DNA of 64,000 nt from Stutzerimonas stutzeri. Lineage in GTDB: Bacteria > Pseudomonadota > Gammaproteobacteria > Pseudomonadales > Pseudomonadaceae. The stretch is taken from positions 1 to 64,000 of the forward strand of contig NZ_JAMOII010000011.1 in assembly GCF_024448985.1 (NCBI RefSeq), given 5' to 3'. The notes under the pieces were generated by a model. It worked only from the letters and a program-made list of their open reading frames with translations. It made no database searches and was not told the DNA's origin. Positions within the stretch are counted from its first letter, which is position 1; each line of letters starts with the position of its first letter. Shown one piece after another: positions 23,439 through 34,304 of this stretch. Both the position numbers and the translations under genes were made by a program.

Positions 23439-23522
23439 ATTCGGCTGCGTATCGCACTTCGATCCCCAGACATGACTCGGTGGTGATGATTACTGCATGG
23501 GATGGATGCAGCGATATTCACC

Positions 23523-24770
23523 CTACCGGCTTTCCGCTGGGGCGGTCTCAAACTCAGAGACTTCCGCCTTTAACATCGACCGAATTCCTCGCAACGCCTG
23601 ACGAATGCGACTCTTGTTCTCTATAAGCGCAAAGCGGACATGGTCATCTCCATACTCGCCAAAACCGATACCGGGAGATACCGCAACCTTGGCCTCTGCC
23701 AGTAGTTTTTTTGCAAACTCAAGCGAGCCTAGTTGCTGATACCGCTCGGGTATCTTTGCCCAGACATACATGGTTGCCTTTGGCTGCTCCACCGCCCAGC
23801 CAATGGCTCGCAATCCCGAGACCAAGACATCTCTGCGGGCTTGGTAGGTCTGAGCGATATGCTTCACGCAGTTCTGGTCGCCCTCCAATGCAGCGATTGC
23901 GGCGACTTGTAGTGGGGTAAACATGCCGTAGTCGTGATAGCTCTTGATGCGTGCCAGGGCGTTTACGAGCTCAGCATTTCCAACCATAAAGCCAACGCGC
24001 CATCCGGCCATGTTGTAGCTTTTCGACAATGTGAAAAATTCGACTGCAACATCCTTGGCCCCAGGCACCTGCAGGATCGAAGGGGCTTGCCAGCCATCGA
24101 ACACAATGTCTGCGTAAGCGAGGTCATGCACGACCAGAATTCCGTATTGCTTGGCGAGAGCAATCACCCGTTCGAAGAAATTGAGATCGACACACTGCGC
24201 GGTGGGGTTCGATGGGAAGCCAAGAATCATCATTTTCGGCGTTGGGATGGATTCGCGTATGGCCCGCTCCAGTTCGATAAAAAAATCCACACCTGAAACA
24301 AGTGGTACGGAGCGGACTTGAGCGCCAGCGATCACAGCGCCATAAATATGGATCGGATAGCTTGGGTTGGGCACTAGCACCGTGTCCCCGGCATCCAGTG
24401 TCGCTAGCATCAAGTGCGCAAGCCCTTCCTTTGAACCGATCGTGACGATTGCCTCCGTTTCGGGATCAATCTCGACGTCGTATCTGCTCTGGTACCACTG
24501 TGTGATTGTGCGACGTAGCCGAGGGATACCTTTTGAGCTCGAATATCCGTGAGTGTCGTCCCGCTGGGCGACCTCACAAAGCTTCGCCACGATGTGTGGG
24601 GGAGTCGCACCGTCCGGGTTACCCATGCTGAGGTCGACAATGTCCTCTCCTCTGCGTCTGGCGTCGAGTTTCAATTCTGCCGTTACATTGAAAACATACG
24701 CAGGAAGGCGATCGATTCGACTGAAAGCCATTTTGGTTGGCACAGGGGCGTAATGACTGCGATTGGACAT
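23523..24770 (-). CDS. Class I/II aminotransferase, AlaC-like
   Basis: 415-aa PLP-dependent aminotransferase of the AlaC group (alanine/glutamate transamination). Asn188 (FPSNPTAQ), Asp216, Tyr219, the PLP Lys250 in [12 protein letters not shown], and the substrate Arg near the C-terminus (VRFALIEN) are visible. Start at 24770; an internal Met14 ([10 protein letters not shown]) is an alternative. It lies downstream of the orphan ccoN unit with an 84-bp gap, on the same strand. Codons look less GC-rich than in the catabolic neighbours. It could regenerate alanine, or tune 2-oxoacid pools that trap cyanide; the latter is speculation. Confidence 0.88.
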
Positions 24771-24854
24771 TAGAATCTCGAGAGTGAAGACGGATTATCT
24801 GAACGAGTGGAGTTGCTTCGTAATCAACAAAGCTAGACTTGAAGATCGCTTGGC

Positions 24855-25010
24855 CTACGCCTTGAATAATGCCTGCGGTTTGTAATCTGGCTCATCAGCA
24901 AATGGGAGATGAGAAGCATCAAGGACATCCTGTTCTGTTAGCCTCAATATCGAATAAGCGAAGAGCCCAGCACCAGCTATCGTCCCGATTAGCATCAATA
25001 ACAAGCTCAT
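24855..25010 (-). CDS. 51-aa single-span membrane protein coupled to orphan ccoN
   Basis: The ATG overlaps the ccoN stop by one base (TGATG), a strong sign of translational coupling. The product has one N-terminal membrane span ([20 protein letters not shown]) and an acidic tail (LTEQDVLDASHLPFADEPDY). A longer upstream frame to 25082 lies inside ccoN and is not credible. By size it resembles cbb3 accessory proteins (CcoQ, CcoS, CcoM), but I do not recognise their motifs. I recall a small gene beside the orphan ccoN4 of P. aeruginosa (PA4133-4134), which it may match. Confidence 0.75.
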   Translation of the reverse strand: MSLLLMLIGTIAGAGLFAYSILRLTEQDVLDASHLPFADEPDYKPQALFKA

Positions 25011-26443
25011 CAAACAACCTCGGCAGTAGAAGGGCGTCGAGCAGTGGTGAATCGTTCCGCCGGAATAACTAACGTGCACCAAGCGTTGTAAGCCATTAAA
25101 ACCATTCCGATCACGAAGAGCGATCCACCCAGGAGGCGCACCACATAACCTGGGTGACTTGCTTCCAGGGTTTCGACGAAGGAGTAAGTAAGGGTGCCGT
25201 CGTCATTGACTGCCCGCCACATCAAGCCCTGCGTGATACCGTTTACCCACATCGAGGCGATGTAGAGAACGGTCCCGGCTGTTGCGAGCCAGAAGTGCAC
25301 GTCGATGAGCTTGATGCTGTACATCCGGCTCTTGCCCCATAGCTCGGGAATCATGTTGTACAGCGTGCCGATCGAGATCATCGCAACCCAACCCAGCGCG
25401 CCTGCATGAACATGGCCGATGGTCCAGTCGGTGTAGTGAGATAGCGCATTGACTGTCTTGATCGCCATCATTGGACCTTCAAAGGTCGACATCCCGTAAA
25501 AGGCAAGAGATACCACCAGGAAACGAAGGATTGGATCGGTGCGCAATTTGTGCCACGCACCTGACAGCGTCATTACACCATTGATCATCCCGCCCCAACT
25601 TGGCGCCAGTAAAATTATCGACATGGCCATGCCCAGGCTCTGCGCCCAATCGGGCAAAGCGGTGTAGTGCAGATGGTGAGGACCAGCCCAGATATATAAG
25701 CTGATGATTGCCCAGAAATGTACGATCGAAAGCCGGTACGAATAGACGGGGCGGTCAGCTTGTTTGGGTACGAAGTAATACATCATCCCCAAAAAACCGA
25801 TCGACAATATAAATCCGACGACGCTATGTCCGTACCACCACTGGATCATCGCATCGGTGGCTCCCGAATACATTGAATATGATTTGAGCACACTGACCGG
25901 TACGGCGACATGGTTAATAACGTGGACCATTGCGGTCACGATGATGAATGCTCCGAAGAACCAATTGGCCACATAGATGTGCTGGGTTGTCCGCTTGGCT
26001 ATTGTCCCGAAAAACAAGTAGATATAGACGGCCCAAACAACCGTGACCCAGACAGCGATCGGCCATTCCATCTCTGCATACTCTTTCGAAGTGGTATAGC
26101 CCAGCGCGTAGCTTATGATCATCGCAAGGATCGCTAGCTGCCATCCCCAGAATACGAACTTTGCAGCGACAGGAGAGATAAGCGGTGTTCTACATGTCCG
26201 CTGCACTACGAATAGCGACGTGGCGAACAGAACGCTGCCACCGAATGCGAAGATGACGAGGTTCGTATGGATAGGGCGGATTCGTCCGAAACTAGTCCAC
26301 GGCAAGTCGAAGTTCAGTGCTGGCCAAACGAGTTGAGCTGCAATGAATGCGCCCATTCCCATGCCCAGTACGCCCCAGACTAGTGCAGCCAACGTGAACT
26401 GGCGAACCACTTCATAATTAAGTGTCTCGTTGATGCTTTTCAC
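25010..26443 (-). CDS. ccoN: Orphan cbb3-type cytochrome c oxidase catalytic subunit (CcoN, CcoN4-like)
   Basis: 477-aa haem-copper oxidase subunit with about 12 membrane spans. It has the low-spin haem His in [15 protein letters not shown], the CuB/Tyr segment [20 protein letters not shown], the [15 protein letters not shown] double His, and [20 protein letters not shown] start at 26443 inside the end of the MOSC gene; the longer ATG frame to 26611 lacks family sequence. No ccoO, ccoP or ccoQ lies nearby, so it must borrow subunits from a cbb3 operon elsewhere, as P. aeruginosa CcoN3/CcoN4 do. CcoN4-containing oxidase is known for greater cyanide tolerance. Its neighbours here (MocR, MOSC, PLP genes) support a stress role. 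Confidence 0.92.
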
Positions 26444-27230
26444 TTTGCATCTCGGCTGTGACTGGGGCATTGGGGATCTGGGCATCGCGCACAAGCCGGC
26501 GCGCTTTAGGGGAAAACGCGTCGTCATGTGATTCGCTTGCATCGGGTTCTGGCCCGCCCAGTCGCTTGTCCCATGATTCAACAGTGCTGGTCCTGATTCG
26601 ATTTGCCACAAGCTTCTGCCAGGAGGGCGGCAACCGAAGCGACTGGAGGCGCGTCAATGCGTCCAAGTTCATGGTGTTTACATAAAGGAGCTGAAGCACT
26701 TTGCGCAGAGGCCACTCGGGGTTCGGTCGTTCGAGCAAGTCCAGCGCAGCGCCGGCTTCGATTGTCCCTGGTTCCAATACCCGGTAGTACCAACCAACTT
26801 TGCCGCTGCGCTGCATTTCGAATGCAGCGCCTTTTATTCCGAGGCGATCATCAAGTTTCCAGCAAGGCTGTCGGGTTTGTGAAACCTCTAGCACTGTGGA
26901 ACCGCACGAGATGATGTCTCCCATGCAAATATTTTCTTCGGTGACCCCAACGGTCGATATGTTTTCACCGAAGGCCCCAGGGGCAGCGAGTAATTCTCGA
27001 TGCCCAAACGCTTCTCTCCAGTGCCGATAGTGGTCGTACGGGTAGTGATGAATGGCCTTGTCGGGTCCTCCATGCACGCGCCGATCTCCTTGCTCGTCAC
27101 CCTCGAATCCCTCAATCCCGACGCTAACCGAGCCCAGGCGTGGTCTTTTATTGATTCCGCTGAAAGTCCCAGGCCGAGTGAATGGCACCGCTCTTCCAGT
27201 CATGATGGTTTGAATCGTCCCGAGTAACAT
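26418..27230 (-). CDS. MOSC-domain protein (YiiM-like)
   Basis: 270-aa MOSC-domain protein like E. coli YiiM. Visible: [41 protein letters not shown], and the conserved Cys in [11 protein letters not shown], the expected sulfur/molybdenum-cofactor-binding Cys. A C-terminal 3-alpha-type region and a charged tail of about 40 residues follow. Start at ATG 27230 with GGAG 9 nt upstream; the longer frame to 27269 runs into the upstream gene. YiiM-type proteins protect against N-hydroxylated bases. It overlaps ccoN by 26 nt and lies 13 bp from the amidotransferase-like gene, so the three genes form one transcript. Confidence 0.82.
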
Positions 27231-27243
27231 TTGCGCGGCTCCG

Positions 27244-27939
27244 TCAGTTCCTATCCAACCAGGATGCAAAAATCATCTGAGCGGCGGTGAGCAGTTCCTC
27301 CCCGCATGCCTGCGCCTGGTCTCTTATGACGCGCGGATCGAGCTTGATGCTATCGAGCTCACCTGCGTGGCCGACGAGCCAGGGCTCGATATGATGCGGG
27401 TTCGCCTCAAGGTGGAACTGAAGGGCTAAAACCGAGTTGCCTATAGCGAACGCTTGGTTCGGGCAAATTTCGGTGGCGGCGAGATGCGTCGCACCAGCGG
27501 GGATTTCGAATTGATCCCCATGCCAGTGCAGTACCGGTACGCCGCTACTTAGCGGCTCCAGGCAGGACTGCAGGCCCGCATCCGTGAGAGATACCGGCGC
27601 AAAGCCGATCTCCTTTTGGTCCATTGGACCTACGTTGCTGCCCAGTGCCCGTGCTATCAGCTGAGCACCAAGGCAAACTCCCAATATTCTCTTACCGCAC
27701 TGGAGACGTTGTTCTACGAACGACAGAACGGCCTTCAGGAGCGGGTACTTCGCTTCGTCGAAAGCACCGATTGGTCCGCCTAGAACAACGACCAGATCGG
27801 GGGCTGACGGATCGTGACTCGCGAGCGATTCGAGGTTCGCGTCCAATGTTTCGATTTGGTATCCGCGGCCAACAAGAATTTGCTGCAGCGAGCCGAGATC
27901 TTCGAAAGCTAGAAAACGAATGACAAGGACGGTTTGCAT
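27244..27939 (-). CDS. Class I glutamine amidotransferase-like protein
   Basis: 231 aa with the class I GATase triad: nucleophile Cys in GVCLGAQLIARALG, and His/Glu in ALQFHLEANP. It resembles stand-alone GMP-synthase-like amidotransferases; no synthetase partner is nearby, so its acceptor is unknown (glutamine or gamma-glutamyl hydrolysis are options). First gene of the leftward GATase-MOSC-ccoN-small-protein unit, divergent from the MocR gene with only 28 bp between the two start codons. Expression probably depends on that MocR. Confidence 0.82.
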   Translation of the reverse strand: MQTVLVIRFLAFEDLGSLQQILVGRGYQIETLDANLESLASHDPSAPDLVVVLGGPIGAFDEAKYPLLKAVLSFVEQRLQCGKRILGVCLGAQLIARALGSNVGPMDQKEIGFAPVSLTDAGLQSCLEPLSSGVPVLHWHGDQFEIPAGATHLAATEICPNQAFAIGNSVLALQFHLEANPHHIEPWLVGHAGELDSIKLDPRVIRDQAQACGEELLTAAQMIFASWLDRN

Positions 27940-27942
27940 TTA

Positions 27943-27978
27943 TGTACCAATACAATAGAATGAATGTATGAATACAAT
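27943..27978. promoter_or_regulatory. Direct-repeat operator candidate for the first MocR regulator
   Basis: TGTACCAATACAAT (27943-27956) and TGTATGAATACAAT (27965-27978) match at 12 of 14 positions and are spaced exactly 22 bp, two DNA turns. They span the 28-bp gap between two divergent genes and the regulator's own start codon. MocR regulators are known to bind direct repeats, so this suggests control of the ccoN unit plus autoregulation. Confidence 0.7.
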
Positions 27979-29266
27979 ATCTAACGGATCGACCGCTGTC
28001 GAGATTGCCGAATCGATCGAGCAGCAAATTCGTTCGGGTTTTTACCAAGACGGCGCCATGTTGCCTGCCGTCAGATCACTCGCGGAGCAGCGCCAAGTCA
28101 GCCCAAACACAGTGGCTGCGGCCTATAAGCTGCTGCGTGATGCAGGCCTGATAGTTACTGACGGACGGCGCGGAACGCGCGTTGCGAGCGAGATGCCGAG
28201 GGCCGAGACCCAAACCACTATTCCGGACGGTTTGCGAGACATGGCCTCCGGAAATATTGACGGGGCGACCTTGCCTGCCATCGAAGCTGGCTGGCTCACG
28301 GAGAGTCAATCCGGCTATGACGTCCAAAGTAACGATCCGCAGCTGCTCGAGGTTGCCGGCCATTGGCTGTCTCAGCAAAGAATTCCTTGCCAGGAGCTGG
28401 GCGTTTACTCCGGAGCGCTCGATGCGGTGGAGCGCGCGCTTCGTCTACGCTGCCGGCCGGGCAGCAAAGTGGTCGTGGAAGATCCATGCTGGCCGCCAGC
28501 GCTTGCCCTATTGGCAAGCTTGCGGCTTAAGGCTGTTCCTGTCCCGGTAGATGCAGAAGGCGCCATGGTTCCATCTGCTGAAGTTCTTCGTTCTGCGGCG
28601 GCGGTCATCCTGACGCCGCGCGCCCACAACCCCACCGGCTTTTGCCTTAGCCGAGGCCGTTGGAAGGCGTGGGTCGATACGCTTGCAGGCGCGCCCGATA
28701 CGCTACTCATTCTCGACGATCATTGGGGACCGCTCAGCGCAGCCAAACCCTTGGATTTCAACCGCGAGCCGGTTAGCTGGCTCTACGTCGTATCGGTAAG
28801 CAAGTTCCTAGGACCAGATCTGCGCGTTTCGGTGGTCACAGGAAGCCCCAATGTGATCAAGAGCATGCACCGTCAGCAGGCGCTCGGCCCTCGATGGGTC
28901 AGCCTGTTGTTGCAAAGACTCGCAGGACACCTTTGGCAGAAGATGCTCGATAGCAGTCGTCTGGCAAGGGTAGGAACAGAGTACTTGGAACGGCGTTCGG
29001 CCTTAATTCGTGGCCTAAACGACCTGGGAGTGGTTGTGCCTGCTCAGGGGGAGGGGCTGCACGTATGGTTGCCCGTCTCGGACGAGACCTCGGTTGTACA
29101 GACGCTGGCATCGTTGGGCTGGGCTATCCAGGCGGGGTCACCGTTCAGGCTGGAAAGCCCAGCGGCCGTGCGGATCAGTATCGGAAACCTGAACCCTATT
29201 AGCGTGCCGGCATTGGCTCGCGACGTTGCGCACGCATTGAAGCAGCGGCGCCGGACGGTGAATTGA
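27968..29266 (+). CDS. MocR-type regulator 1 (GntR HTH fused to aminotransferase-fold domain)
   Basis: 432 aa: GntR-type winged HTH (about 5-75: SLAEQRQVSPNTVAAAYKLL) joined to a fold-type I aminotransferase domain (about 90-430) with LTPRAHNPTG (215-224), the Asp-containing LILDDHWG, and the PLP-lysine motif SVSKFLGPDLR (Lys279). MocR proteins sense PLP or a PLP-ligand adduct. It diverges from the GATase-MOSC-ccoN unit. I recall a MocR gene (PA4132) beside the orphan ccoN4 in P. aeruginosa and another linked to cyanide-insensitive oxidase genes in P. pseudoalcaligenes, which favours a role in oxidase control. Confidence 0.9.
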   Translation: MNTISNGSTAVEIAESIEQQIRSGFYQDGAMLPAVRSLAEQRQVSPNTVAAAYKLLRDAGLIVTDGRRGTRVASEMPRAETQTTIPDGLRDMASGNIDGATLPAIEAGWLTESQSGYDVQSNDPQLLEVAGHWLSQQRIPCQELGVYSGALDAVERALRLRCRPGSKVVVEDPCWPPALALLASLRLKAVPVPVDAEGAMVPSAEVLRSAAAVILTPRAHNPTGFCLSRGRWKAWVDTLAGAPDTLLILDDHWGPLSAAKPLDFNREPVSWLYVVSVSKFLGPDLRVSVVTGSPNVIKSMHRQQALGPRWVSLLLQRLAGHLWQKMLDSSRLARVGTEYLERRSALIRGLNDLGVVVPAQGEGLHVWLPVSDETSVVQTLASLGWAIQAGSPFRLESPAAVRISIGNLNPISVPALARDVAHALKQRRRTVN

Positions 29267-29303
29267 ACAGGAGCCCGCCAAATCCGGCCGGTTCGCTGTG
29301 CAA

Positions 29304-30596
29304 TCAGAAACAACTACCTAGATCTTCGGCGAAGCGGGCAGCCTGGTCAGCATCAAGCATCGAAGTGGTGATGCGAATGCCGCGTATCGGCTCCTGAACG
29401 GTGAACCCCGTACCGCTGCGAACGACCCAGCCTCGCTGGGCCAGACGCAAAATGATCGGCTCGACGTCTTCTCTGAGCGGTACCCAGACGTTGAGCCCAT
29501 CGCACGGACGTTGGGCCTGTATCCCTTGAGCACTGAGCGCATCAATCAGAACGTCTCTGCGATTTTTGTAGTCGGCACGGGCGTGCTCGATTTGCTCTGC
29601 GAACAGGGGCGATGTCAGACAGGTATGAGCGATATCCTGCAGCAGATGGCTCACCCAGGTGGTGCCTGGCGCCAGTCGCAGCCGCAACCGCTGCGATGTC
29701 TCGCGATCGCTGCCGACAGCAGCGAGCCGAAGGTCCGGCCCGAACGCTTTGGATACTGATCTGATCAACGCCCAGCGTCTGGTGGAAGAGGGAATGACTT
29801 GGTGAAACTGCGAGTCGGACAGCAATGCGAAGTGATCATCTATTAGTACGAAAACGTGCGGGTACCGCTCAAGCACTACCCGCAATTCCTCAGCCCGCTC
29901 GGCGCTGACGCTCGATCCGGTGGGATTGTGCGCACGAGGCGTGATCAGGACTGCCAGTACTCCCTTCGCTAAAGCGTCCGCGAGCGCGCCTGCTTGCATT
30001 CCTTGCTCGTCTACCGGAATGCCGACAGCCTGTAAGCCGGCGATACGCAGCGTGTTGATGCTACTGATGAAGCATGGGCTCTCGACCGCAACCTTGTCCC
30101 CCGCAGCAAGGTAGGTGGCCAGCAGCCGTTCAACGGCGTCCACTGCGCCATGGCTCAGGTCGATTTCTGGAGGCGAGGGGCAGTCGTCGACTAGCCACCG
30201 ATAGGCTGCGTCCTGAAAGACCGGATCAACAGGTGCGTCGCCGTAAAGCCGCAGATGGGATTTACGCTGAGACAGTGCAAGAACCGGATCGGGTAACCAC
30301 GTCGGGTTCGGGTTGCCGCTCGACAAATCGGTCAGCCGAGTGTGACCGATCCGACCTTCCTGCTCGCCGGGACTAGCCGTTTCACAGATCACGGTTCCGA
30401 GCCGCCCCCGGGTCTCGGCGATACCTGCCGTTACCAGACGTCTGTATGCAGCGGCAACTGTGTTGCGGTTGACCCCAAGCTCGGAAGCTAGCTGCCTTAC
30501 GGGCGGTAGCGTCTGACCCGGGTTCAACTGATGCGTCTGAACCTGGCTTCGTATCGTTTCGAAGATATCGGCTGCGGTTTTGCTTATAATTTCCAT
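29304..30596 (-). CDS. MocR-type regulator 2 (PtsJ-like arrangement)
   Basis: 430 aa with an N-terminal GntR HTH (LASELGVNRNTVAAAYRRLV, 37-56) and an aminotransferase-like domain with ITPRAHNPTGS (218-228), LIDDHF and the PLP Lys283 in SVSKAFGPDLR. It is a diverged paralogue of MocR 1, convergent with it (37-bp gap) and divergent from a pyridoxal-kinase-like gene. The MocR protein PtsJ is known to sit divergent from pdxK in enterobacteria and repress it; the layout here is the same. Confidence 0.9.
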   Translation of the reverse strand: MEIISKTAADIFETIRSQVQTHQLNPGQTLPPVRQLASELGVNRNTVAAAYRRLVTAGIAETRGRLGTVICETASPGEQEGRIGHTRLTDLSSGNPNPTWLPDPVLALSQRKSHLRLYGDAPVDPVFQDAAYRWLVDDCPSPPEIDLSHGAVDAVERLLATYLAAGDKVAVESPCFISSINTLRIAGLQAVGIPVDEQGMQAGALADALAKGVLAVLITPRAHNPTGSSVSAERAEELRVVLERYPHVFVLIDDHFALLSDSQFHQVIPSSTRRWALIRSVSKAFGPDLRLAAVGSDRETSQRLRLRLAPGTTWVSHLLQDIAHTCLTSPLFAEQIEHARADYKNRRDVLIDALSAQGIQAQRPCDGLNVWVPLREDVEPIILRLAQRGWVVRSGTGFTVQEPIRGIRITTSMLDADQAARFAEDLGSCF

Positions 30597-30640
30597 ATTG
30601 TCCTATGACAATGTTTACTTGATCACAGGACAATCTTACA
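30597..30640. promoter_or_regulatory. Operator candidate between MocR 2 and the pyridoxal-kinase-like gene
   Basis: ATTGTCCTATGACAAT (30597-30612) is an interrupted palindrome touching the MocR 2 start codon. GACAAT recurs as a direct repeat at 30607 and 30629, spaced 22 bp, each followed by a TTAC stretch. The 22-bp spacing equals that at MocR 1 although the sequence differs, which fits two related regulators with separate specificities. Confidence 0.6.
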
Positions 30641-30746
30641 CTCCAGATCAAAGGTTGCTACCCAGGCAATCGAATCAACGCCAGCTTAGGCTGTGGTCTC
30701 TACAGCCGCGGATCATCGGCAGGCTGCAAATTTGGAGCATGCATTG

Positions 30747-31619
30747 ATGGCTGCCAGCAGGGATTTCGCCGATATGTCAGGTACAGAGCCGCTTTCACTC
30801 GACGTGATTTCAATTCAATCGCAGGTGGTCTACGGATGCGTTGGTAACAGCGTCGCCGTGCCTGTGCTCCATGCGAGCGGACTTGCTGTAGGGGCCATAC
30901 CCACCGTAGTGCTCAGCAATACCCCTCACTACCCAACCGTACATGGCGGTGCGCTTCCGACCAGCTGGTTCGCCGGCTATCTGAAAGACTTGGAGGCCCG
31001 GGATGCCTTGCGCTCGGTTAAAACCATCCTGGTGGGCTACCTCGGAAACACAACCCAGGCAGCGGTTTTAGCGCGCTGGCTGGGTACCGTATTAGGGAAG
31101 TTTTCCGACATATGCGTTCAGCTGGACCCTGTGCTCGGTGACGATGACTGCGGGATGTACGTAGACCCCTCGATGGTGCGTGCCTTTCAGGATCATCTGC
31201 TCCGGTTTGCTCATGGCCTTACACCCAATGCTTTCGAACTGGCGCGCCTGTGCGGTCGCCAGGCTGAAACGCTCGAAGAGGTTATCGATGCCGCACGCAG
31301 CCTACTGATTGGGCGCACCCAGTGGGTCGTGGTTACCAGCGCAGCTAAACGCGATTGGCCTATGGGTCGCATGTACGTAGTGGTGGTGACGAAAACATAC
31401 GCCGAGGTGATCGAGCATGAGCGAGTCAACGTATCGCCTAAGGGAACCGGTGACCTCTTCAGTGCCGCACTTGCCGCAGCGCTGCTGACCGGCATGAATC
31501 TCACCGACGCCGTTCAGTCTGCCAGCCGCAAAGTGGTCGAGTCTCTTGCGCTAACTCTTCAAAGCGACTCGGTCGAGCTGCGCCTTTCGACTCGGTTCCC
31601 TCTCTTCGCTAAGGAATGA
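30747..31619 (+). CDS. Pyridoxal/pyridoxine kinase-like protein (PdxK/PdxY family)
   Basis: 290 aa of ribokinase-like fold. Motifs: SIQSQVVYGCVGN (substrate region), LDPVLGDD, TPNAFELARLCG, and the ATP/anion-hole GTGDLFSAALAA with the catalytic Asp. These are the vitamin B6 kinase signatures. Start chosen at ATG 30747, which has GGAG 9 nt upstream; a GTG at 30693 in the same frame adds non-family residues, and ATG 30774 is also possible. It would phosphorylate pyridoxal or pyridoxine to PLP/PNP. It is first in a plus-strand unit with a small protein and an aminotransferase, divergent from MocR 2. Confidence 0.85.
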   Translation: MAASRDFADMSGTEPLSLDVISIQSQVVYGCVGNSVAVPVLHASGLAVGAIPTVVLSNTPHYPTVHGGALPTSWFAGYLKDLEARDALRSVKTILVGYLGNTTQAAVLARWLGTVLGKFSDICVQLDPVLGDDDCGMYVDPSMVRAFQDHLLRFAHGLTPNAFELARLCGRQAETLEEVIDAARSLLIGRTQWVVVTSAAKRDWPMGRMYVVVVTKTYAEVIEHERVNVSPKGTGDLFSAALAAALLTGMNLTDAVQSASRKVVESLALTLQSDSVELRLSTRFPLFAKE

Positions 31620-31885
31620 TTGCCATGCCTGTCTACCGCCTGAACATTGGCCGCTACCAAAAGCATCTTGGCCATTTCGAATCTGATGCGCCATGGGCGT
31701 TGGAGGCGATGCAAGACATCGCTCAGCGTCTTCCGGCAGACGAGGGCTATCGTGTCGAGATGCAGGTGTCTGATGGCGAGCGGCGCTATCTCGAAGTCGG
31801 CCCAAGCGGAATCCGGGTACTGGGCACGGAGCATAGCTTTCGGCCGTTAACACAGAGCGCAACACTGCTTTCATTAATGGAGTAA
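31616..31885 (+). CDS. Small uncharacterised protein, 86-89 aa
   Basis: The ATG at 31616 overlaps the kinase stop (ATGA); ATG 31625 (MPVYRLNIGRY) is an alternative giving 86 aa. No signal peptide or membrane span is seen; the composition is soluble, with alternating hydrophobic strands (YRVEMQVSDGERRYLEVG). I do not recognise a family. Tight packing between the kinase and a class III aminotransferase (5 bp to the next start) implies it works with PLP metabolism or with that aminotransferase, but no function can be assigned. Confidence 0.7.
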   Translation: MIAMPVYRLNIGRYQKHLGHFESDAPWALEAMQDIAQRLPADEGYRVEMQVSDGERRYLEVGPSGIRVLGTEHSFRPLTQSATLLSLME

Positions 31886-31890
31886 CAGTT

Positions 31891-33108
31891 GTGGATGATC
31901 AGGGCTCTCATCTGATGCATGCCTATGCCAGGCAGTCGGTCTACTTCTCCCGTGGCCAGGGTATCCGCCTGTGGGATACCCACGGTAGGGAGTATCTCGA
32001 TGCCATATCAGGGGTTGCGGTGACCAACCTCGGTCACTCGCACCCTGAGATAACCGCAGCCATTGCCGATCAGGCGGGCCGGTTGATGCATACCTCGAAC
32101 ATGTTCGGGATCGAGTGGCAGGACTCGCTCGGTTCGAGACTTTGTGCGATCTCAGGGATGCGGCGAGCGTTTTTCTGCAATTCTGGAGCGGAAGCAAACG
32201 AGACGGCGCTAAAACTGGCTCGCTTGCACGCGACCCGCAGGAAAGTAGCTCAACCAGTCGTTCTGGTGATGGAGAACAGTTTTCACGGCCGCACACTCGC
32301 AACGTTGGCCGCAACCGGCAACCCAAGCGTCCATCGGGGCTTCGAGCCGCTTATGCCAGGTTTCATGCGGGCGCCGTATGCCGACATCGACGCAGTCATG
32401 GAACTTGCATCGCAATGTTCCAATATCGTTGCGGTACTGGTCGAGTCAGTGCAAGGCGAGGGCGGTGTACGCATTGCGCCTATTGCCTATATGCAGGCGC
32501 TGCGAGACCTCTGTACTGCAAATGACTGGCTGTTCATGGTCGATGAGGTGCAGACGGGATTCGGGCGCACTGGTGCATGGTTCGGGTACCAGCATGCAGG
32601 TGTTTTGCCGGACGTAATCACTTTGGCCAAAGGCCTCGGCAACGGATTTCCAATCGGCGCATGCCTGGCCAGAGGTGCTGCGGCGGACCTTTTTTCACCC
32701 GGCCACCACGGCTCAACTTTTGGCGGCAATCCAATGGCCTGTCGAATAGGCTGCACTGTCGTCGATGTGATGGAGCGTGATCGCGTACCGCAACATGCGA
32801 AAGCCATGGGGCAGCGCTTTGAGGGCGCGCTGCGCCAGGGGCTCGGGGGATGTGATGGCGTGGTAGCGATTCGCGCGTTCGGTCTGATGGTCGGTATCGA
32901 AATGAATCGTCCGTGCGGCGAGCTCGTAGCCTATGCATTGGAGCATGAAGCGCTGTTGATCAGCGTCACGCGTGGGCAAACGATTCGTCTGCTGCCGGCT
33001 TTGATCTGCACCGAAGAAGAAATTGATGAAATTGCGGCGCGCCTGTCCCGACTCGTTTGGCAATGGTCGCGACGGTGCGCGAAATTAGGCATGCGGGAGA
33101 CTGCCTGA
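31891..33108 (+). CDS. Class III aminotransferase (acetylornithine/succinylornithine type)
   Basis: 405 aa, PLP-dependent. Visible: NSGAEANETALKLAR (97-111, cofactor phosphate site), ENSFHGRT, MVDEVQTGFGRTG with Asp218, and the Schiff-base Lys247 in TLAKGLGNGFPIGA. Closest by eye to ArgD/AstC-type omega-aminotransferases. GTG start at 31891; the upstream stop and GGAG overlap (GGAGTAA), so translation is probably coupled to the small gene. An omega-amino acid or acetylornithine would be the amino donor; the true substrate is unknown. Last gene of the accessory block. Confidence 0.88.
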   Translation: MDDQGSHLMHAYARQSVYFSRGQGIRLWDTHGREYLDAISGVAVTNLGHSHPEITAAIADQAGRLMHTSNMFGIEWQDSLGSRLCAISGMRRAFFCNSGAEANETALKLARLHATRRKVAQPVVLVMENSFHGRTLATLAATGNPSVHRGFEPLMPGFMRAPYADIDAVMELASQCSNIVAVLVESVQGEGGVRIAPIAYMQALRDLCTANDWLFMVDEVQTGFGRTGAWFGYQHAGVLPDVITLAKGLGNGFPIGACLARGAAADLFSPGHHGSTFGGNPMACRIGCTVVDVMERDRVPQHAKAMGQRFEGALRQGLGGCDGVVAIRAFGLMVGIEMNRPCGELVAYALEHEALLISVTRGQTIRLLPALICTEEEIDEIAARLSRLVWQWSRRCAKLGMRETA

Positions 33109-33237
33109 TTGGGCTGGCCCTTGTTGCTCGCGATTATGGTGTTCGGAGTCAGTTAGAGCGCTTTTCCGATCTGCTGTGGTGTTGGTGCATGTCGGAGTTG
33201 ATGGTGGTTGAACTAAGCGCCGTTCTATCTAAGCTAC

Positions 33238-34304
33238 TCAATCCCAACCTGCTGCATCTACCGAGTCCCGTATCGCCCCCGGCGTCCGCGAGAAGCGCGG
33301 CGCCGGCGCGGCGTGCAGCGCGCCGTCAATGCTGCGATAGACGCCGCGCTGGTGCATGTGCGGATGTTGCACGGCTTCTTCCAGGGTGAGCACCGGCGCG
33401 AAGCAAGCGTCGCTACCTTCGAGTAGGGCGCACCAGTCGGCTTGGGTTCGGCTGGCGAACAGGGCGGCGAGCTGTTCGCTCTGTTCTTCCCAACGGTCCG
33501 GGTCGGCACAGCCTTGTCGCAGGTTTTCCGGCGCATCGATTCGCTGCATCAGCTCTGCAAAAAACTGCGGTTCCAACGGACCAACGGCGATCTCGCGACC
33601 ATCGGCGCAGGTATAGCAGCGGTAATGCGGTGCCGCGCCTGAGAGCAGGTTGCGCTCGCGTTCGAGGGAGATTGCACCGCGGGGCAAGAGGCCGGCGAAG
33701 AAGGTCATCATGGAGGACACACCGTCGACGATCGCAGCATCGATCACTTGCCCCTTGCCCGATCGTTCTCGCTCCCACAGCGCGGCCATGATGCCGAACG
33801 CCAGATACAGCGAGCCGCCGCCAAAATCGCCTACCAGATTGAGCGGCGGAATCGCCGGGCCTTCGCGGCCACCTATCGCTGCCAGTGCGCCGGTGATCGC
33901 TAGGTAATTGATGTCATGTCCCGCAGCCTGGGCGAGTGGACCGCTCTGGCCCCAGCCGGTCATGCGGCCGTAAACCAACCGCGAGTTGCGCGCATGGACG
34001 TGTTCTGGCCCAAGGCCCAGCCGCTCCATCACACCGGGACGAAAGCCTTCGATCAGCACATCGGCGCTCTCCAAAAGCGTCAGGCATTGCTCGCGCCCGG
34101 CTTCGGTGCGGATGTCCAACGTCAACCGTTTGCGGCCACGATCAGCCACTGGGTTGGGCCACCCGTTGCCGCCCTCGCGCTCGATGCGGATCACCTCGGC
34201 GCCGAGGTCGGCCAGCAACATTGCGCAATGTGGGCCGGGGCCGATACTGGCGAACTCCAGCACACGCAGGCCGAGTAGAGGACCTTGGCGGGGTTATTTT
34301 TCAT
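33238..34304 (-). pseudogene. Alpha-methylacyl-CoA racemase (CaiB/BaiF family), apparent frameshift at the start
   Basis: The long frame (33238-34263, 341 aa from a GTG) carries the racemase catalytic residues: His in GHDINYLAITGAL and Asp in NLVGDFGGGSLYLAFG. It lacks the usual first residues (GPLLGLRVLEF). Those are encoded just upstream, and an ATG at 34304 (MKNNPAK) runs toward them but is one base out of register. Adding one G at about 34283-34284 (AAGG to AAGGG) would give MKNNPAKGPLLGLRVLEF, matching the family. So it is either a real 1-bp deletion, an assembly error, or use of the GTG start. It epimerises 2-methylacyl-CoA, useful for (R)-2-methylbutyryl-CoA. Last gene of the mms operon. 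Confidence 0.8.

What the first reader, a model, noticed from the sequence alone, without database searches (positions are those of the whole stretch)
23523..33108. Accessory block pairing an orphan cbb3 oxidase subunit with PLP supply, PLP enzymes and PLP-type regulators
Seen: AlaC-like aminotransferase, 51-aa membrane protein, orphan ccoN, MOSC protein, GATase-like protein, two MocR regulators, B6 kinase, 89-aa protein and class III aminotransferase, in four tight units around two divergent promoters. Known: CcoN4-type subunits raise cyanide tolerance; MocR genes lie beside ccoN4 in P. aeruginosa and beside cyanide-insensitive oxidase genes in P. pseudoalcaligenes; cyanide reacts with the PLP aldehyde and with 2-oxoacids. 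Inference: one system that senses loss or modification of PLP through MocR proteins and answers with a resistant oxidase isoform, new PLP and replacement aminotransferases, against cyanide or another carbonyl-reactive toxin.
Basis: partly seen in the sequence, partly recalled or inferred. Interest (0 to 1): 0.82.

Follow-up and report, generated by a model that had tools for sequence, protein, structure and literature searches.

The report
Accessory vitamin B6 supply gene island
A ten-kilobase gene island found in a minority of Stutzerimonas bacteria supplies and probably protects the vitamin B6 cofactor under two B6-type regulators; the oxidase gene that drew attention is an optional passenger, while a small unnamed protein turns out to be a widespread neighbour of B6 genes.

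Summary
The genes are as described and form one inserted island (about 23439-33237); three non-carrier genomes inspected show the empty site. The core is a B6/PLP module. PtsJ stands divergent to pdxK and p89 (the 89-aa protein), as at the Salmonella and Klebsiella ptsJ locus, with twin sites 22 bp apart. A second MocR protein (MocR1) stands divergent to GATase-MOSC, again with twin sites, conserved into other families. In the genus, 45 of 56 genomes show no recognisable B6 kinase; all 9 island carriers have the gene, broken in two. p89 belongs to no Pfam family, yet 27 of 28 p89 loci outside the genus hold MOSC, GATase, PdxK or YggS nearby, against 0 of 73 control loci. Two other Stutzerimonas genomes and a Pseudomonas plasmid carry parallel clusters of B6 kinase and further PLP enzymes. 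The oxidase claim fails: CcoN is in 3 of 9 islands and is not the CcoN4 orthologue, neither regulator is MpaR (22-24% identity), and the MpaR motif is absent from both promoters. Protection against carbonyl-trapping or N-hydroxylated PLP poisons is inference. Rating: new variant of a known kind.

The parts
23439..33237 (.). island inserted between ACAD1 (ends 23438) and CaiB (stop at 33238)
   Evidence: ACAD1 and CaiB adjacent in 3 of 3 non-carriers inspected; G+C drop
23523..24770 (-). AlaC-type alanine aminotransferase; island-specific cargo
   Evidence: NF006033; present at E <= 1e-80 in 9 of 56 genus genomes, the same nine that carry MocR1
24855..25010 (-). CcoQ-like 51-aa protein
   Evidence: LPFADEPD motif shared with CcoQ of the own genome
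25010..26443 (-). orphan CcoN, 477 aa, optional cargo
   Evidence: TIGR00780; His at 60, 207, 257, 258, 345, 347 (numbering) kept in all 7 CcoN aligned there (their role as ligands is recalled); 3 of 9 islands
26418..27230 (-). YiiM-type MOSC protein with the invariant Cys (probable N-oxide/N-hydroxy reductase)
   Evidence: Pfam MOSC and YiiM_3-alpha; alignment of 7; E. coli YiiM structures match
27244..27939 (-). class I glutamine amidotransferase-like protein
   Evidence: NF005458 over cut-off; Cys, His and Glu of the triad kept (alignment; triad recalled)
27943..27978 (.). MocR1 site pair: two TGTA-N4-TACA palindromes 22 bp apart, the second overlapping the MocR1 start
27968..29266 (+). MocR1, MocR-family regulator with PLP lysine K279
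29304..30596 (-). PtsJ, MocR-family regulator of B6 salvage, PLP lysine K283
   Evidence: NF012025 over cut-off
30598..30633 (.). PtsJ site pair: TTGTCCTATGACAA and a weaker copy 22 bp on
   Evidence: same layout in Salmonella
30693..31619 (+). PdxK-type B6 kinase (start uncertain: 30693, 30747 or 30774)
   Evidence: NF006034 over cut-off; only B6 kinase found in the genome
31616..31885 (+). p89, unannotated 86-89-aa protein; overlaps the pdxK end by 4 bp if it starts at 31616, 5-bp gap from the conserved start 31625
   Evidence: family assembled; model pLDDT 89
31891..33108 (+). ArgD-like class III aminotransferase, recurrent neighbour of pdxK, p89 or yggS
   Evidence: TIGR00707 over cut-off; neighbours

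Best explanation
An accessory island that secures the PLP (vitamin B6) pool, built from two adjoining MocR regulons. PtsJ represses pdxK-p89-argD-like (and probably itself) through two sites 22 bp apart; when free PLP falls or is modified, repression is lifted, PdxK phosphorylates salvaged pyridoxal, pyridoxine or pyridoxamine and passes PLP on, and p89 assists in a way not yet known. MocR1 controls GATase-MOSC(-CcoN-CcoQ)-AlaC from a shared 28-bp divergent promoter; MOSC most likely reduces N-hydroxylated compounds (hydroxylamine type or oximes) that trap the PLP aldehyde, and AlaC and the ArgD-like enzyme are extra PLP aminotransferases. CcoN-CcoQ is optional cargo that would swap the catalytic subunit of the cbb3 oxidase. 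Shown by sequence: gene content, both site pairs, synteny, no second B6 kinase found, optional status of CcoN. Known from others: PtsJ represses pdxK and PLP is its effector in Salmonella; PdxK and YggS can hand PLP to an aminotransferase. Inferred: that the PLP-bound form of PtsJ is the repressing one, regulation by MocR1, the poison, the MOSC substrate, the roles of GATase and p89.
For: PtsJ and PdxK over curated cut-offs; Salmonella and Klebsiella carry ptsJ | pdxK-p89, and Salmonella a GATase beside ptsJ; a site pair with the same 22-bp spacing in Salmonella. Clusters of PtsJ with YggS, GATase, PdxK and p89 in other families. 27 of 28 p89 loci with MOSC, GATase, PdxK or YggS against 0 of 73 controls. 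No B6 kinase signal above 38 bits in 45 of 56 genus genomes. Parallel clusters with further PLP enzymes: plasmid L179, G008 and G046. MOSC enzymes studied so far reduce N-oxygenated compounds, and mARC reduces oximes and hydroxylamines (PMC10637980, passages). PtsJ and PdxK biology: PMC12172467 and PMC13353753, passages.
Against: pdxK is broken in 2 of 9 carriers (G052 frameshift, G001 truncated) and in one of the parallel clusters (G046, two frames). 10 of 21 loci with a MocR1 relative at 48% or more have no GATase or MOSC. AlaC was found in none of the 16 MocR1 loci other than L071-L075. By mere count the sites are not remarkable: at up to 3 mismatches 3 PtsJ-type matches in the window against 2.74 expected, 4 MocR1-type against 1.57 (8 of the shuffles reach 4), and in the whole genome the PtsJ pattern at up to 2 mismatches gives 8 matches against 14 for the reversed control; the case rests on position, spacing and conservation. 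AurF-type N-oxygenase genes in two islands would oxidise rather than reduce nitrogen and fit poorly. No expression or phenotype data exist here.
Confidence: 0.58

Rival explanations
1. Plain nutritional salvage: the island only lets the cell use external B6 vitamers, and the other genes are unrelated cargo.
For: Only B6 kinase found in the genome, and none seen in 45 of 56 genus genomes; classic ptsJ-pdxK-p89 layout.
Against: MOSC, GATase and ArgD-like recur with p89 and the B6 genes in other families; sister clusters carry GlyA and TrpB genes, not needed for salvage. pdxK decay in 2 of 9 carriers while the MocR1 unit keeps its genes also speaks against salvage as the whole function.
Confidence: 0.22
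2. One reading: a cyanide response in which MocR proteins sense PLP-cyanohydrin and induce a cyanide-tolerant oxidase isoform, new PLP and replacement aminotransferases.
For: In P. aeruginosa the MocR protein MpaR drives cyanide-dependent expression of orphan ccoN4 (PMC10790758: abstract, passages, section 8); window CcoN overlaps MOSC in the unit divergent to MocR1.
Against: Regulators 22-24% identical to MpaR, CcoN not the CcoN4 orthologue, ATCTGAT absent from the promoters, CcoN in 3 of 9 islands only.
Confidence: 0.1
3. Self-protection or remnant of a biosynthetic cluster for an N-oxygenated, PLP-directed natural product (AurF-type oxygenase plus reductase in two islands).
For: AurF and FAD/Fer2 reductase between CcoQ and AlaC in G044 and G003, and next to MOSC-p89 in three Pseudomonas loci; homologous oxygenase and a neighbouring iron-sulfur reductase in a Pantoea plasmid gene group with ATP-grasp and MFS genes.
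Against: No AurF match in the window or in the 20-kb loci of the six other carriers; no scaffold-forming enzyme among the island genes.
Confidence: 0.08

Closest known systems
Salmonella/Klebsiella ptsJ-pdxK B6 salvage locus
   Same: PtsJ divergent to pdxK, p89 homologue directly after pdxK, site pair with 22-bp spacing (Salmonella), GATase beside ptsJ in Salmonella
   Different: Here joined to a class III aminotransferase and to a second MocR regulon with MOSC, AlaC and an optional CcoN-CcoQ; the GATases are of different NCBIfam families (NF005458 against NF006098)
MpaR-ccoN4Q4 cyanide cluster of P. aeruginosa
   Same: A MocR-family regulator near an orphan ccoN-ccoQ pair
   Different: No orthology of regulator or CcoN, other operator, no nirA or ccoG among the island genes
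YggS-PdxK-ArgD-like clusters with GlyA or TrpBA (Pseudomonas BYT-1 plasmid; Stutzerimonas G008, G046)
   Same: B6 kinase gene plus the same ArgD-like enzyme plus further PLP enzymes beside a MocR-type gene; GATase of the same kind in two of the three (no match in G046)
   Different: Another MocR protein (BYT-1: 22% to MocR1), PLP carrier YggS, GlyA or TrpB in place of AlaC, no MOSC match; the G046 kinase gene is split over two frames

Membership tests
PtsJ-pdxK B6 salvage locus | PtsJ equivalog score | tested here: met
   631 bits, cut-off 573
PtsJ-pdxK B6 salvage locus | pyridoxine/pyridoxal/pyridoxamine kinase divergent to ptsJ | tested here: met
   387 bits, cut-off 342; the TIGR00687 score, 141, is just under its cut-off 144.5
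PtsJ-pdxK B6 salvage locus | twin site between ptsJ and pdxK | tested here: met
   Salmonella and Klebsiella compared; binding itself not tested
PtsJ-pdxK B6 salvage locus | repression of pdxK with PLP as effector | not testable with these tools
   known for Salmonella (PMC12172467 passages)
MpaR-CcoN4 cyanide system | regulator orthologous to MpaR | tested here: not met
   22% (MocR1) and 24% (PtsJ); MpaR Lys314 aligned, Tyr284 without counterpart
MpaR-CcoN4 cyanide system | CcoN orthologous to CcoN4 | tested here: not met
   71% against 81% to own C6 orphan; tree of 9 places CcoN4 with the canonical CcoN, 100/100
MpaR-CcoN4 cyanide system | ATCTGAT motif in the promoter | tested here: not met
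   none in 27940-27967 or 30597-30692
MpaR-CcoN4 cyanide system | induction by cyanide | not testable with these tools
   needs expression data
orphan cbb3 ccoNQ pair | CcoN equivalog with CcoQ and without ccoO/ccoP | tested here: met
   697 bits, cut-off 583; CcoQ motif
YiiM MOSC subfamily | MOSC plus 3-alpha domain and invariant Cys | tested here: met
YiiM equivalog (6-hydroxyaminopurine reductase, NF008577) | score over curated cut-off | tested here: not met
   169 bits, cut-off 294

The most novel reading that the evidence does not exclude
p89 and the YiiM-type MOSC protein are dedicated parts of PLP homeostasis: MOSC releases PLP from oxime-type adducts or destroys the N-hydroxylated poison, p89 is a PLP-delivery factor that hands cofactor from PdxK or YggS to aminotransferases, and accessory islands bundle both with spare PLP enzymes as resistance to PLP-directed toxins.
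Probability: 0.25. Interest if true: 0.85.

Novelty: new variant of a known kind. Interest (0 to 1): 0.55.

Why it matters
It gives a genomic reason to place an unannotated protein family (p89), present at the Salmonella ptsJ locus too, and a YiiM-type MOSC protein in vitamin B6 homeostasis. How PLP is delivered to its enzymes is described as unclear (PMC13353753, start of abstract and passages), and compact gene sets with defined candidate operators make it directly testable. It also separates these PLP islands from the MpaR-CcoN4 cyanide system, which they resemble only on the surface.

Tried and rejected

Literature searches without a relevant hit: YfeJ with glutamine amidotransferase (0 papers), MOSC domain with MocR (1 irrelevant), MOSC with glutamine amidotransferase and pyridoxal kinase, pyridoxal kinase with self-resistance, aminotransferase and gene cluster, MOSC domain with pyridoxal kinase. 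ptsJ, pdxK, Pseudomonas and glyA together gave only the two Salmonella papers cited. The regulon paper PMC5320631 (term search of its main text) holds none of MOSC, ptsJ, glutamine amidotransferase, ccoN or cyanide.
Full report
What is there. The ten genes of the finding are real and in the stated order. CcoN is 477 aa from a GTG at 26443 and overlaps the end of MOSC; the 51-aa protein shares the LPFADEPD motif of CcoQ, so the pair is an orphan ccoN-ccoQ. The block is an insertion: in 3 of 3 non-carrier genomes inspected, the flanking genes ACAD1 and CaiB are direct neighbours (L195-L197), and one other carrier, G026, holds its island at the same place (L034). The other seven carriers show none of these flanking genes in the 20 kb fetched, apart from a 26% FadD match in one, so the island sits in more than one place. 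Its G+C is 0.563 against 0.615 and 0.606 in the flanks.

Distribution in the genus. MocR1 is in 9 of 56 genus genomes, own included, and an AlaC at E <= 1e-80 is in 9 of 56, the same nine. All eight other carriers keep AlaC-MOSC-GATase, divergent MocR1, convergent PtsJ and divergent pdxK; seven of the eight also keep p89 and ArgD-like. CcoN is in 3 of 9 (own, G044, G003); CcoQ is whole in own and G044, while in G003 only its second half aligns in frame. G044 and G003 carry in addition an AurF-type diiron oxygenase and a FAD/Fer2 reductase between CcoQ and AlaC. pdxK is frameshifted in G052 and truncated in G001.

The island brings the B6 kinase. A search of the own genome with PdxK finds no other kinase at E <= 1e-5. 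With the pyridoxal kinase model TIGR00687, 11 of 56 genus genomes give more than 49 bits (the nine carriers, G008 and G046; 7 pass the cut-off of 144.5, the window copy scores 141.1); the other 45 give at most 37.6 bits, which I read as other kinases of the superfamily. Whether such a kinase covers pyridoxal in those genomes is not known.

Two regulons, two site pairs. Between the GATase and MocR1 start codons there are 28 bp in the window and in 10 of the 11 loci L071-L081 (L080: 27 or 30, start uncertain); they and the first MocR1 codons hold two TGTA-N4-TACA sites 22 bp apart (27943 and 27965). The first site is kept through L081 and L080, where MocR1 identity is 56% and 53%; the second becomes imperfect there. 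Between ptsJ and pdxK stand TTGTCCTATGACAA (30598) and a weaker copy 22 bp on. The Salmonella ptsJ-pdxK region has TTGACCTATGACAA and TTAGCATATGACAA, again 22 bp apart; L053 and L167 have twin sites upstream of yggS, L038 and L168 show one. The exact PtsJ site occurs once in the own genome, but matches with up to 2 mismatches (8) do not exceed the reversed control (14), nor do matches with up to 3 mismatches in the window clearly exceed shuffles (3 against 2.74; MocR1 type 4 against 1.57). The case rests on place, spacing and conservation.

MocR1 in other bacteria. Five of the 11 are genus carriers already counted, and L077 is the same locus as L063.

Parallel clusters. A Pseudomonas plasmid carries YggS-GNAT-GATase-PdxK-ArgD-like-TrpB-TrpA-GlyA near a MocR-type gene. 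Stutzerimonas G008 carries YggS-GATase-PdxK-ArgD-like-GlyA, with a serine/threonine dehydratase-like gene beyond the MocR-type gene; G046 carries YggS-GNAT-PdxK-ArgD-like-TrpB-TrpA-GlyA, its pdxK split over two frames. GlyA has 3 copies in G008, 2 in G046 and 1 each in the own genome and G003, so the cluster GlyA of G008 and G046 is a spare; TrpB copy number was not tested. The ArgD-like enzyme is 63-67% identical in all three.

The oxidase and cyanide part. The P. aeruginosa cluster with nirA, ccoG, mpaR, ccoN4 and ccoQ4 was available in a public record (gene names after PMC10790758). MocR1 and PtsJ are 22% and 24% identical to MpaR; the PLP lysine aligns, MpaR Tyr284 does not. Window CcoN is 71% identical to CcoN4 and 81% to another orphan CcoN of the own genome (L151); a tree of nine CcoN proteins puts CcoN4 with the canonical subunits (100/100) and the window protein on the side of the other orphans. 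The motif ATCTGAT, required for ccoN4 expression (PMC10790758 section 8), is in neither promoter. P. aeruginosa ccoN3Q3 is tied to nitrite and ccoN4Q4 to cyanide (PMC5697931 passages); CcoN3 itself was not available, so whether the window protein is CcoN3-like was not tested.

Mechanism. In Salmonella PtsJ represses pdxK and binds PLP (PMC12172467 passages), and PdxK and YggS are proposed to pass PLP to TyrB (PMC13353753 passages). MOSC enzymes studied so far reduce N-oxygenated compounds, and the mammalian relative mARC reduces oximes and hydroxylamines (PMC10637980 passages); the window MOSC keeps the invariant Cys but is below the YiiM equivalog cut-off. From this I infer an island that senses loss of free PLP, restores it by salvage, removes N-hydroxylated or carbonyl-trapping poisons, and adds aminotransferase capacity. 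The toxin, the MOSC substrate and the roles of GATase and p89 are not shown. The AurF-type oxygenase in some relatives does not fit well and is left open.

Noticed in passing
L198 (G008), L199 (G046), L179 (Pseudomonas BYT-1 plasmid): Clusters of YggS, PdxK, an ArgD-like enzyme and GlyA or TrpBA near another MocR-type gene; the plasmid is typed as conjugative.
   Followed up: partly
L032:3640-5643 and L036:4397-6400: AurF-type diiron oxygenase and FAD/Fer2 reductase inside the island of two relatives; a homologous oxygenase sits in a Pantoea plasmid gene group (L201).
   Followed up: partly
27940-27967: Only 28 bp separate the divergent start codons of GATase and MocR1, with palindromes reaching into MocR1; transcripts may be leaderless. 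Same spacing in 10 of 11 related loci.
   Followed up: partly
L151 (own genome C6:36001-56000): A second orphan ccoN followed by a CcoQ-like frame, divergent to a small protein; a small gene beside ccoN in L202 is annotated DUF6306.
   Followed up: partly
L034:14025-14423: Remnant of a second caiB-like gene at the far end of the island in G026, possibly a trace of the insertion.
   Followed up: no
L064:5518-11004: Diverged MOSC-p89-ArgD-like-GATase genes beside genes that look like davA-davB of lysine breakdown (names recalled).
   Followed up: no
L178 (Tistrella plasmid pTM3): A 40% MocR1 relative divergent to a GATase with an AurF relative nearby, in Alphaproteobacteria.
   Followed up: no
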